Origin: Isoetes taiwanensis
Taxonomy: Eukaryota; Streptophyta; Lycopodiopsida; Isoetales; Isoetaceae
Assembly (NCBI GenBank): GCA_021234155.1
Contig: JAJEKV010000002.1
Coordinates: forward strand, 11,212,725 to 11,276,724
Reading direction: 5' to 3'
DNA length: 64,000 nt
A program made the translations under genes and the position numbers. Shown one piece after another: positions 41,453 through 44,887 of the stretch. Positions within the stretch are counted from its first letter, which is position 1; each line of letters begins with the position of its first letter. The notes beneath the pieces are model-generated. The model saw only the letters and a program-made list of their open reading frames with translations, made no database searches and had not been told where the DNA came from.

Positions 41453-43696
41453 TCAGCAAATTGCTCAGCAGATAGCTAAGTTGGTGAAGGAGTTCCATGA
41501 TCTCTTCCCAGACGAGATCAAGCAGATCCCTCCTTACAGGGGAGTCGAGTGTGAGATAGCACTCGAACCAGGTACGAAGCCGACGAGCAAGGCTCCGTAC
41601 AGGATGACGACGCAAGAGCTGATCGAGTTGAAGAAGCAATTGCAAGAGTTGCTTGACCTAGGGTTCATTAGACCTAGCGTCTCACCATTTGGGGCACCCA
41701 TTCTTTTTGTGAAGAAGAAGGATGGCAGCTTAAGGATGTGCATAGATTACAGGCAGCTGAACAAGCACACCATCAAGAATAAGTATGCACTCCCCAGATC
41801 GGACGACTTGATGGATCAGCTCCAAGGGGCGAAGGTTTTCTCCAAGATAGACCTGAGGTCGGGGTACCATCAGATCAGGATTATGGAAGAAGACGTCCAC
41901 AAAACAGCATTCAGGACCAAGTATGGGCATTAGAGTTCACTGTAATGCCGTTTGGTTTGTCAAACGCCCCAGCAACATTCATGAGGCTTATGAACGACAT
42001 CTTCAGGGAGTTTTTGGATACTTTTGTGATAGTATTCTTTGATGATATTCTGGTGTATAGCAGATCCCTGGAAGAACACGTACAACACCTAAGGAAAGTG
42101 CTGGAGAAGCTAAGGAGGCACCAATTGTACGCTAAGTTGTCGAAGTGCCACTTCGCAACGGAGAGGGTGGAATACCTGGGTCATGTGATCTCATCAGAGG
42201 GATTTGGACGGATCCTGCCAAGATTGAAGCAGTCATACAGTGGTCGGTGCCGAAGAACATCCACGAGGTCAGAAGCTTTCTTGGCCTAGCAGGGTACTAC
42301 AGGAAGTTCGTGAAGAACTTTGCAAAAATAGCGGCCCCGCTAACAGATTTGACGAGGGCGGAAAAAGTAAAGGATTGGGCAGATCACTGGCAGAAGAAAG
42401 CCCAAATAGGATTCGAGATGTTGAAGGAAGCTTTGACAACCGCCCCCGTCTTGACCCTGCCAGACCCAGAGAAGGACAAGCTTGTGGCGACAGATGCAAG
42501 TAAGATTGCCACAGGTGCAGTGCTGATGCAGGAAGAGCGAGTAGTGGCTTATGACTCTCGGAAGATGAACGACGTCGAAACGCGATACCCGACTCATGAT
42601 CAGGAGTTGCTTGCAGTTGTCAGAGCACTAAGAATTTGGAGGCACTACCTGTTGGGGAGGAAATTCCAGTTGGACACGGATCATCAGAGCCTCCAATACG
42701 TGTTCACGCAACCACATCTCAATCTGAGGCAGCGAAGGTGGATGGAGTTCCTCGAAGAATATGACTTTGATATAGTTTATAAGCCGGGGAAGCTCAATGC
42801 GCTAGTAGATGCGCTTTCAAGGCATCCTCTGACAACAAGAGTCCACTGCAATGCAATCTCGACACTCACCAGCGACTTCGGAAAGAAGATCGAAGAAACC
42901 TTACCGATAGATGCAGACTTCAAGAAAGTGTGGGCGAGCTTGTGCAAGGAGGCAAGAACAGATAAGGAGAGGGAGACCTTCAAGAATTTTAAGAAGGAAG
43001 GTAACCTTTTGTACCATAAGAACAAGTTGTGTGTGCCTGAATCATCAGGGGTGAGAAAGTTGATTCTCCACGACACCCACAACAGTCCAATAGCTGGCCA
43101 CGCAGGATTTATGAAGACATATTTCAAAGTGCGCAGTAGCTATTTGGAACCATTATCGGTGCCGAACGCTAAGTGGGAAGTCATCAGCATGGACTTCATA
43201 ACAGGGCTCCCGAGAACAGCAAGAGGAAAGGATGCCCTGATGGTTGGCACACTTTGTGCCTTGCAGGACCACCGACACAGCCTTGGATACAGCGAATCTC
43301 TTCGCGAAGGAAATCTTCAGTTTTCATGGCATGCCGAGAGAGATCATCTCTGACAGAGACCCGAAGTTCATGAGTGCCTTTTGGCAGGATCTTTTTGCGA
43401 CAATCCAGACGGAGCTGTCCATGAGTACGACCTATCATCCTCAGACGGATGGGCAAACAGAATGGACCAACAGAATTTTGGAAGATATGCTACGAAACTA
43501 TGTCTGGAACAAGCAGAGTAAGTGGGAAGATTATATTCACTTGGTTGAGTTCGCTTATAATAGCACCAAGTAGGAATCATCCCAGATGTCGCCGTTCATG
43601 ATCAACTACGGCTACCAATGTCTAACTCCAGACACTTGGCACAATCATGTGTCAAAAGTAGAGATCTCGCAGCAAATGTTGGCCGACATGCAGCAG
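41453..43696 (+). pseudogene. Chromovirus pol fragment (RT-RNase H-integrase), copy 1
   Basis: Begins at QQIAQQIAKLVKEFHDLFP and runs through RT (KIDLRSGYHQI; FFDDILVYS at about 42035-42060), RNase H with intact D-E-D-D (ATDASK, DQELLAVV, DTDHQSL, LVDALSRH) and integrase (SMDFITGLP, ISDRDPKFMSAFW, TDGQTEWTNR). Frame breaks: one base lost near 41932, one near 42205, about 73 bp missing near 43137 (removing the CC half of the HHCC zinc module) and about 25 bp missing near 43240. A TAG at 43571-43573 follows NSTK. Compared with copy 2 (49.3-51.65 kb) it is far better preserved. No gag, protease or LTR is attached on the left. At 43696 it departs from copy 2 into the histone-like ORF. Confidence 0.9.
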
Positions 43697-43703
43697 TTGG
43701 TAG

Positions 43704-44887
43704 ATGCTTCGGGAGCGACTTCTCACAGGAGGAGGCCAACCTTCATCAGGCGAGGAGAGCACTTCAGAGGAGCAACAGGAGTCGAGGCAAGAATCATTAG
43801 AGGAGCTGGCTAACACCATCGACCAGGAGTTAGACGAAGGAGCAGAGAGGGAATCAAAGGGCTCAATAGATGAGGAAACTCAAGAAGCATACGAGGAAAT
43901 TGAAGAGGAGATACGAGAGCAAGAGAGGGCAGAACAGGAGGAGGAGCAGAGGGAGCCCACTCCCGAGCCAACCGAAGAAGAACAGCTCGAGGCCTGGATC
44001 AGAATGCACGAGGCGAAGGCACGACGCCGCGAGAAGAAGAAGGCCGAGAGGAAGAGGAAAAGAGAAGAAAAGGAGGCAAAGGAGGCCGAAGCAAAGAAGA
44101 AGCTCAAGGGCACAAACGTGGAGGAGCCCAAGAGGAAGACGAAGAAGACCCCGATGACAAAGATTGTCATCGAGGAACGGCCGCCCGACAAGCCCCCATC
44201 CTCGGACGACTCGGATGATGAGGATTATAATCCTAATCAAGAAGGTGGGAGCTCCTCCAAGCCCCCAGATGAGGAGCAGACAGACCAGGAGCAGGCAGAG
44301 CAGGATCAACAGGTACAGGTGCCTCCACCTTACCCAACATGGAAGAAGGGCAAAGACTCCAAGAAGCCGCCCCGACCTGCCAGGGAGTCCTACGTGGTAG
44401 ACCATCTTAGGGTCTACCAAAAGAAGTTGAAGGCGCACCAGGAATATATGAAGAAGTGGGAGGCCTATAACTCCTACTATCAGGCGAACAAGGTCACTTT
44501 TGTTGCAGGAGGACGGCCATCAAAGAAGCAGACTCTCAAGCCGCCTCCAGAGAAGCCGATTCCCCCGAAGAAGCCAATGGCAAGGAAAGCCAATTCGAAG
44601 CTGTCACGAGCACTTCGGGAGATCAAACATTTTCAGAGAAGCTATGGCCTACTCATCCCTCGTGCACCATTCGCCAGGCTCGTGAAGGAAGTCATGCGAG
44701 AGTTCGACTCCAGCAAGAGAGTAACAGGCGAGATGCTGCTAGCTCTGTAAGAAGTAGCTGAGCAAAAGCTGGTGCAGCATTTTGAAGACTTGACAGCCAA
44801 GAGAGTGCATGCACTATACACGCCAAGAGGGTGACTCTGATGAAGAAGGACATGGACCTGGCCAGCTACATTAAAGGAGAGAGATAA
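43704..44887 (+). pseudogene. Histone H3-like protein with ~300-residue charged N-terminal tail
   Basis: An open frame from ATG 43704 (right after a TAG) encodes 348 residues to a TAA at 44748-44750; the H3 fold clearly continues past it. The tail is acidic at first (QESLEELANTIDQELDEGAE), then Lys/Arg/Glu coiled-coil-like (EKKKAERKRKREEKEAKEAE), then SSDDSDDEDYNP, then Pro/Lys-rich. The histone fold starts at residue 303: ALREIKHFQ, LLIPRAPFARLVKEV, then ALQ-like (TAA for CAA), LVQHFED and, after one lost base near 44820, AKRVTLMKKDMDLASYIKGE and a stop at 44885-44887. Each piece aligns with the aN, a1, a2 and a3 helices of H3. AATAAA signals lie at 44900 and 44913. It follows chromovirus integrase on the same strand. 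Two lesions make it a pseudogene as read. Confidence 0.88.

What the first reader, a model, noticed from the sequence alone, without database searches (positions are those of the whole stretch)
41453..44887. Chromovirus pol joined to a histone H3-like gene in place of its chromodomain
Seen: same-strand RT-RNase H-INT reading ends at 43696 and is followed 8 bp later by an ORF whose C-terminus matches all four helices of histone H3 (ALREI, PFARLVKEV, LVQHFED, AKRVT...GE). In the sister copy at 49.3-52.2 kb the same integrase position continues into GPY/F and a chromodomain. Known: chromoviral chromodomains read histone marks to choose integration sites. Inference: an element may have swapped a histone reader for a histone itself, possibly placing its own nucleosome or marking its particles or target. 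I know of no described LTR element with an H3 domain.
Basis: partly seen in the sequence, partly recalled or inferred. Interest (0 to 1): 0.95.

Follow-up and report, generated by a model that had tools for sequence, protein, structure and literature searches.

The report
Retrotransposon family encoding histone H3
The histone-like gene next to the transposon remains is real: it belongs to a family of plant jumping genes that carry, ahead of their usual genes, a protein ending in a complete histone H3, something I found no description of in this kind of jumping gene.

Summary
A Histone-family search of the window's genome (1.66 Gb, probably Isoetes taiwanensis by size) gave 8705 first-look candidates; 150 were scored. 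I fetched 29 non-canonical ones, chosen for long frames: each is an extended ORF with H3 near its end. Of ten fetched with surroundings, seven lie between LTRs, with PBS, PPT and, in three, exact 5-bp target duplications. Order: LTR, ORF1 (new N-terminal region plus H3), ORF2, Gag, protease, RT, RNase H, integrase, chromodomain, LTR. So H3 lies upstream of Gag and the chromodomain is kept. In this H3-selected sample the H3 fold is the most constrained part measured. In the window, 43705-54823 is one such element lacking its 5' end, preceded by a truncated pol of another copy. The integrase-H3 junction is a rearrangement seen at two places on one scaffold, apparently a local duplication. The window's H3 scores closer to plant CENH3; four abundant-type copies score closer to canonical H3. 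My searches found no described LTR element with H3; fungal hAT transposons with H3 are the nearest precedent. Function is inferred: a nucleosome-entering chromatin anchor.

The parts
41452..43704 (+). Truncated pol (RT, RNase H, integrase core) of one chromovirus copy; starts at the 5' edge of RT and ends inside integrase, no Gag/protease, no GPY/F, no chromodomain, no LTR; internal stop and frame breaks
   Evidence: 71-88% aa to pol of L015/L025; integrase part 92-96% to 38 other places, none of which continues into ORF1
43705..44884 (+). 5'-truncated ORF1 of the next element: acidic/coiled region plus H3 fold; broken by a stop at 44748 and a frame change near 44790
   Evidence: second copy L058; relative in L021:4931-5337
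44610..44884 (+). H3 histone fold, nearer to plant CENH3 in sequence
   Evidence: Histone 2.6e-9 and 6.8e-6; plant-CENH3 profile 94.5 bits, H3 profile 77.4; 50% to host H3
45615..46089 (+). Relic of ORF2 in two frames, placed by position and by eye only (start resembles ORF2 of L015/L025); not found by tblastn at 1e-3
   Evidence: one search gives no ORF2 match here
47687..48212 (+). Gag (capsid) relic
   Evidence: E about 1e-35 to gag of L025 and L015, 44-53% aa
49266..52150 (+). Pol of the same element: RT, RNase H, integrase, GPY/F, chromodomain region; many frame breaks, some possibly assembly error
53118..53128 (+). Polypurine tract GGTGGGGAGAA directly before the 3' LTR
   Evidence: read against PPTs
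53129..54823 (+). 3' LTR (TGTGATG ... ACGTCACA); no second copy of it in the window
   Evidence: L021:2280-3735 matches 53180-54823 in pieces, 79-89%; self-comparison

Best explanation
The window holds a rearranged copy of a chromovirus (Ty3-type LTR retrotransposon) family that encodes its own H3-fold protein. A typical copy reads LTR, ORF1, ORF2, Gag, protease, RT, RNase H, integrase, GPY/F, chromodomain, LTR, about 13 kb. ORF1 is mostly 410-465 residues from its first Met: an N-terminal region for which I found no known relative, a charged coiled stretch, and a complete H3 fold. Shown: architecture, repetition, LTR/PBS/PPT/TSD, strong constraint on the H3 fold in an H3-selected sample, kept nucleosome-contact residues, loss of the first part of the H3 tail. 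Inferred: ORF1 pairs with host H4, enters nucleosomes or tetrasomes, and its own N-terminal region takes the place of the H3 tail, so that the element's protein anchors to or marks chromatin, for integration or to keep its copies from being silenced. In the window, a deletion or similar rearrangement between two neighbouring copies fused the integrase of one to the middle of ORF1 of the next (inferred).
For:: 150 scored of 8705 Histone candidates, 5 of 150 with a stop inside, spread over many contigs, frames up to 494 aa; 29 copies picked from those rows for long frames; 29 of 29 read H3 with a long non-H3 extension. LTR pairs in 7 of 10, 89.6-93.9% identity, PBS string TGGTATCAGAGC in 5 of 7, PPT AAGGAGGGGAGAA in 4 of 7, exact 5-bp TSDs in 3 of 7 (L017, L019, L023), 4 of 5 bases in L015. 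Histone 8e-42 (L025) and 3e-42 (L015); in L015's downstream part Ty3_capsid 3.5e-17, RVP_2 1.5e-5, RVT_1, RNase H, integrase H2C2, SH3_Tf2-1, Chromo 3.3e-9. Gag downstream of H3 in 10 of 10, pol in 9 of 10; median Ka/Ks 0.032 for the H3 fold (197 of 378 pairs usable), 0.136 for the rest of ORF1 (152 of 378); ten copies H3 0.013 (20 of 45 pairs) against RT 0.165, Gag 0.172, integrase core 0.028; R49, R63, R69, R72, R83, F84, C110, H113, K115, R116, T118, D123, L126 kept in 28 of 28. for the window's arrangement.
Against: Copies were taken from the best Histone scorers with long frames, so constraint on H3 and ORF integrity are overstated, and copies without H3 were not sampled. The 8705 is a loose first look, not a copy count. 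No LTR pair was found for 3 of 10 copies (L009, L013, L027). No expression, protein or binding data. Two ORF1 types are only 41-46% alike (N-terminal region 31-33%), while their pol is 86-94% alike where frames are unbroken, so ORF1 may move between elements separately. LTRs are 6-10% diverged, so no copy is shown to be active. The mechanism step is inference.
Confidence: 0.8

Rival explanations
1. H3 is a passenger: a host H3 cDNA caught by the element and multiplied, without function for the element, as with histone H3 in fungal hAT transposons.
For: Host H3 fold is 81-87% identical to that of the 29 fetched copies; gene capture by plant TEs is reviewed in PMC13317346 (passages).
Against: The H3 fold shows the lowest Ka/Ks measured, with integrase core next, is fused in frame to a non-H3 extension in 29 of 29 copies, and synonymous divergence is large (median Ks 0.74), so it has been kept over a long time. 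The sample was selected for H3, which weakens this.
Confidence: 0.1
2. Anti-silencing variant of the mechanism: nucleosomes carrying ORF1-H3 on the element's own DNA cannot receive the usual tail marks, so the copies escape heterochromatin.
For: ARTKQ is absent in 29 of 29 and ARKS upstream of the fold in 28 of 29 ORF1s; the fold itself keeps H4- and DNA-contact residues.
Against: A lysine that may correspond to K27 (GKS/GKT) is kept, and alignment of the tail is ambiguous; no chromatin data.
Confidence: 0.25
3. Packaging variant: ORF1-H3 with host H4 binds the element's cDNA or RNA inside the particle.
For: ORF1 lies before ORF2 and Gag on the same strand within the LTRs.
Against: No evidence that H4 enters particles; Gag has its own capsid domain and a CCHC-like stretch read by eye.
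Confidence: 0.12
4. One reading: the integrase-H3 fusion itself is a functional unit in which H3 replaced the chromodomain.
For: The junction exists at two places, 90-91% alike.
Against: The two places share 366 bp left of the pol fragment as well, so they look like one local duplication; 38 other integrase matches do not continue into ORF1; pol fragment and ORF1 are each truncated and broken.
Confidence: 0.02
5. Host H3 variant genes lying beside transposons, or assembly artefact.
For: Some indel clusters in the two junction copies look like consensus errors.
Against: LTRs, PBS, PPT and TSDs enclose H3 on separate scaffolds; Gag downstream in 10 of 10.
Confidence: 0.02

Closest known systems
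hAT DNA transposons carrying histone H3 in Dothideomycete fungi (Pyrenophora tritici-repentis PMC3538342; Pseudocercospora fijiensis PMC6710886; passages read)
   Same: A mobile element carries a histone H3 coding sequence and multiplies it.
   Different: Class II element with terminal inverted repeats; 26 copies in one species, 784 H3-like copies inactivated by RIP in the other; no long N-terminal extension mentioned in the passages read. Here an LTR retrotransposon with a constrained, extended ORF1.
Plant chromoviruses (REXdb clades CRM, Reina, Tekay, Galadriel, Tcn1, Chlamyvir; PMC6317226, passages read)
   Same: Gag, protease, RT, RNase H, integrase, chromodomain, tRNA-type PBS, short TSD.
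   Different: Two extra ORFs before Gag, the first ending in H3. The terms 'additional ORF', 'aORF' and 'extra ORF' do not occur in that text. The chromodomain looks type II by eye (no aromatic at the first and third cage positions).
Single viral histones, e.g. bracovirus H4 (review PMC9145170, passages read)
   Same: A parasite encodes one host-like core histone, with an extended tail in bracovirus H4, thought to enter host nucleosomes.
   Different: DNA viruses or their relatives; the review text has no occurrence of 'retrotransposon'.
Plant centromeric histone CENH3
   Same: Window-type H3 scores better with a four-sequence plant CENH3 profile than with H3.
   Different: Encoded by an LTR element, 5'-truncated and broken in the window.

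Membership tests
LTR retrotransposon | Direct LTRs, PBS, PPT, target-site duplication around the H3 ORF | tested here: met
   7 of 10 copies with LTR pair; PBS 5 of 7, PPT 4 of 7, exact TSD 3 of 7
Chromovirus (Ty3/Gypsy) | Pol order RT-RNaseH-INT with C-terminal chromodomain | tested here: met
   (L016 only, by Pfam); window 51728-52150 by homology to it
Chromovirus clade Tcn1 | Majority lack a tRNA-complementary PBS (PMC6317226, passage) | tested here: not met
   TGGTATCAGAGC after the 5' LTR in 5 of 7; that it matches a tRNA is recalled
Any named chromovirus clade | Position in an RT tree with reference elements | not tested
   no reference RT sequences were at hand
Core histone H3 | Histone fold with H3-type sequence | tested here: met
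   8.3e-42; H3.3 best PDB match of L025, 2.2e-51; 29 copies group with host H3, support 99/97
Canonical H3 | N-terminal tail ARTKQTARKS | tested here: not met
   ARTKQ 0 of 29, ARKS upstream of the fold 1 of 29
CENH3 (window type only) | Sequence closer to CENH3 than to H3 | tested here: inconclusive
   94.5 against 77.4 bits, profile of four plant sequences, and a frog CENP-A control scored alike with both (121.9, 120.3); long branch; host CENH3 not found for comparison
CENH3 (window type only) | Deposition at centromeres | not testable with these tools
   needs ChIP or tagging
hAT element with H3 | Terminal inverted repeats and hAT transposase | tested here: not met
   LTRs and Ty3 pol instead; Pfam found no hAT domain in the six proteins scanned

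The most novel reading that the evidence does not exclude
Chromoviruses of this lycophyte encode their own histones as working parts, taken up at least twice: a canonical-H3-derived one in the abundant families and a CENH3-derived one in the window's type. The ORF1 protein builds element-specific nucleosomes that anchor integration or shield the element, alongside an integrase chromodomain, so one parasite both writes and reads its chromatin.
Probability: 0.25. Interest if true: 0.97.

Novelty: new variant of a known kind. Interest (0 to 1): 0.9.

Why it matters
Chromodomains suggest that chromoviruses read chromatin; a family that also brings its own H3 under strong constraint would make parasite-made nucleosomes directly testable. 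It bears on how elements choose sites, evade silencing and, if the CENH3-like type holds up, on centromere evolution. It may also mislead H3 copy counts and repeat masking: the I. taiwanensis paper describes removing repeats with plant-protein matches from its repeat library (PMC8566536, passage), which could have removed these (inference).

Tried and rejected
Rejected: INT-H3 swap; shared-LTR tandem arrays with 11.6-kb period, which I noted from hit spacing (note) and then dropped because the second junction locus is about 3.7 kb longer between H3 and the next integrase. Loss of K27 was considered and not claimed, since two tail alignments differ.

Led nowhere: full window ORF against 5.8 billion proteins (5223 candidates, none at 1e-3); the H3 end alone found 119 of 143 candidates at E 10 or less (best 1e-20), listed with Histone, one of the best named CENH3 of Linum, no element named. 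Alignment search (7328 hits, 120 listed; the two sequences opened, P0120 and P0121, hold several H3 copies in one protein; listed rows cover at most 49% of the query), which cannot exclude distant relatives of the N-terminal region because such models outrank them. N-terminal region of two copies against Pfam at E 10 (0) and of six copies, as a profile, against PDB (best E 0.078); phage tblastn (none). ORF1 structures were not predicted because the tool's list of accepted sources does not name loci from the fetch from genomes. Genome-wide searches with the window ORF, with the N-terminal region and with the LTR-PBS motif did not complete.

Full report
What is in the window. On + strand the pol reading 41452-43704 and an open frame 43704-44750 are there. 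The frame has Pfam Histone at 2.6e-9; the remaining H3 lies past a stop and in another frame (44792-44884, 6.8e-6). The best PDB matches of the frame are fission-yeast Cnp1 and a Cse4, then H3. The pol copies at 41452 and 49288 are 83-85% alike; the homology ends on both sides of the first.

The turning point. A search of the window's genome with PF00125 gave 8705 first-look candidates and scored 150. Fifteen rows match from profile position 2 at 164 bits or more; seven of the eight of these that I fetched read canonical host H3 (L008 lies on the other strand and was not translated there, though tblastn shows H3 in it). The remaining rows are dispersed, and many have frames above 400 aa; 5 of 150 have a stop inside. 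I fetched surroundings of ten and ORFs of nineteen more (a twentieth, L048, is the same place as L011). I chose these 29 for their long frames, so that they read H3 in a long frame (29 of 29) is partly selection; what they add is the shared non-H3 extension. L031 runs on past the usual end and was dropped from the Ka/Ks and residue counts.

Anatomy. In the ten with surroundings, LTR pairs were found in 7 (L011, L015, L017, L019, L021, L023, L025), not in L009, L013, L027. LTRs are 1.3-1.7 kb as aligned (two pieces in L019), start TGTGACG where the alignment reaches the end, end GCGTCACA or a near variant, 89.6-93.9% identical. PBS, PPT and TSD counts are given above. From these coordinates L015 spans 6917656-6930873 on C1056, 13.2 kb. 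Between the LTRs: ORF1 with H3, ORF2 (502 codons open in L025; no Pfam match for the L011 part), Gag with Ty3_capsid, RVP_2, RT, RNase H, integrase, SH3_Tf2-1, Chromo (L015's element; the rve match was just under its cut-off). Gag follows H3 in 10 of 10, pol in 9 of 10. I know the initiator-tRNA match of the PBS from general knowledge, not from a call.

ORF1. Three types by N-terminus among the 29: MPRFKLT-like, METPKQVY-like, and two MANTKS/MANIKS-like copies (L045, L046) (a few frames lack the first part). The first two types are 41-46% alike over ORF1 with H3 included and 31-33% in the N-terminal region, while L025's pol is 86-94% identical to that of MPRFKLT-type copies where frames are unbroken (L010, L016, L020, L055): ORF1 evolves faster or has been exchanged. 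The H3 fold is 81-87% identical to host H3 over 101 residues. In the tree it groups with canonical H3 (99/97) away from CENH3s; 17 of 37 inner branches are open. Residues that contact DNA and H4 or form the H3-H3 bundle (assignment recalled) are kept in 28 of 28; S86, S87, E105 and T107 differ from host in 28 of 28 and G102 in 27. The first part of the canonical tail is missing. Ka/Ks medians: H3 fold 0.032, rest of ORF1 0.136 (181 and 226 of 378 pairs were left out as too close, saturated or too short). For the ten copies H3 0.013 (20 of 45 pairs), integrase core 0.028 (5 copies), RT 0.165 (8), Gag 0.172 (8). Bias: copies were chosen among top Histone scorers.

The window again. Element proteins map to H3 44610-44884, Gag 47687-48212, pol 49266-52150. 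A PPT and complete 3' LTR follow at 53129-54823. So the 'sister' pol belongs to the H3 ORF's own element, which lacks its 5' LTR, leader and the start of ORF1. The pol fragment left of it comes from another copy of the same pol family. A junction-spanning query (5447 candidates, 40 scored, 41 matches) shows integrase alone at 38 other places (92-96%), ORF1 alone at one (78%, C974), and the whole junction only at the window and at C1018:11466907. There, 1201 bases are 91% alike, with differences in clustered indels in GC-rich coding sequence and at least 180 identical bases after the stop. 366 bp left of the pol fragment are shared too. I read this as one rearrangement, duplicated locally, with some consensus errors; breaks in the window copy should therefore be treated with care. 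An old relative in L021 has window-type LTR sequence upstream of the same ORF1 end, so this ORF1 type also sits behind an LTR.

CENH3-like type. The window's H3 is 50% identical to host H3 and scores 94.5 bits with a plant-CENH3 profile (four sequences), 85.3 with a fungal CENH3 profile and 77.4 with H3; L025, L015, L045 and L046 score 124-128 with plant CENH3 against 181-189 with H3. It is suggestive only: a broken gene on a long branch, no host CENH3 for comparison, and a frog CENP-A used as a check scored alike with plant CENH3 and H3 profiles (121.9, 120.3), so the profiles do not sort every CENP-A. Alanine at 107 in 28 of 28 abundant copies also occurs in the Juncus, P0001 and Nannochloropsis proteins printed.

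Organism. G000 has 1,658,258,908 bases in 1110 contigs. The Isoetes taiwanensis paper gives 1658.30 Mb in 204 scaffolds plus 909 contigs (PMC8566536, passages). The identification is inference.

Known or not. Searches (open-licence PMC papers only) listed no paper whose title or abstract start describes an LTR element with an H3 ORF. I read passages of PMC9145170, PMC10541799, PMC8566536, PMC6317226, PMC3350952, PMC13317346, PMC6710886 and PMC3538342 and only listings of the rest. The nearest precedent is histone H3 in fungal hAT transposons.

Mechanism, steps marked. Shown: a constrained H3 fold with nucleosome-contact residues, a lost tail, a new N-terminal region, position before Gag, and a chromodomain in the same element. 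Inferred: pairing with host H4, nucleosome entry, and a role in anchoring, targeting or shielding. I put about 0.4 on anchoring or targeting, 0.25 on anti-silencing, 0.12 on packaging, 0.1 on no function, the rest on something else. The confidence of 0.8 given above is for the anatomy and reading of the window.

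Noticed in passing
window 3242-14123, - strand: An LTR element with about 2.45-kb LTRs (3242-5674 and 11671-14123, 94.9% over the aligned length); Gag-like, RNase H-like, RT and integrase frames on -. By eye an RNase H-like frame (9030-9929) lies before RT rather than between RT and integrase.
   Followed up: no
window 31350-32886: Direct tandem duplication of about 770 bp, 91.6% identical.
   Followed up: no
window 38409-38872: Inverted repeat, 142-bp arms, 92% complementary, 180 bp apart.
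   Followed up: no
window 2479-2839 and 87-245: Minisatellite arrays with 19-bp periods.
   Followed up: no
window 59672-62947, - strand: Degraded frames that by eye resemble a LINE (endonuclease and RT pieces).
   Followed up: no
G000:C974:19228133-19229119: ORF1-like piece (78% to window 43707-44180) 118 bp upstream of an integrase piece: another rearranged copy, in the other order.
   Followed up: no
L025 against L010, L016, L020, L055: ORF1 types 41-46% alike sit on pol 86-94% alike: ORF1 may be exchanged between elements as a module.
   Followed up: partly
L026 and L020: Gag and pol lie in one frame, split by a single stop in L026 (L025's element) and fused in L020 (L019's element).
   Followed up: no
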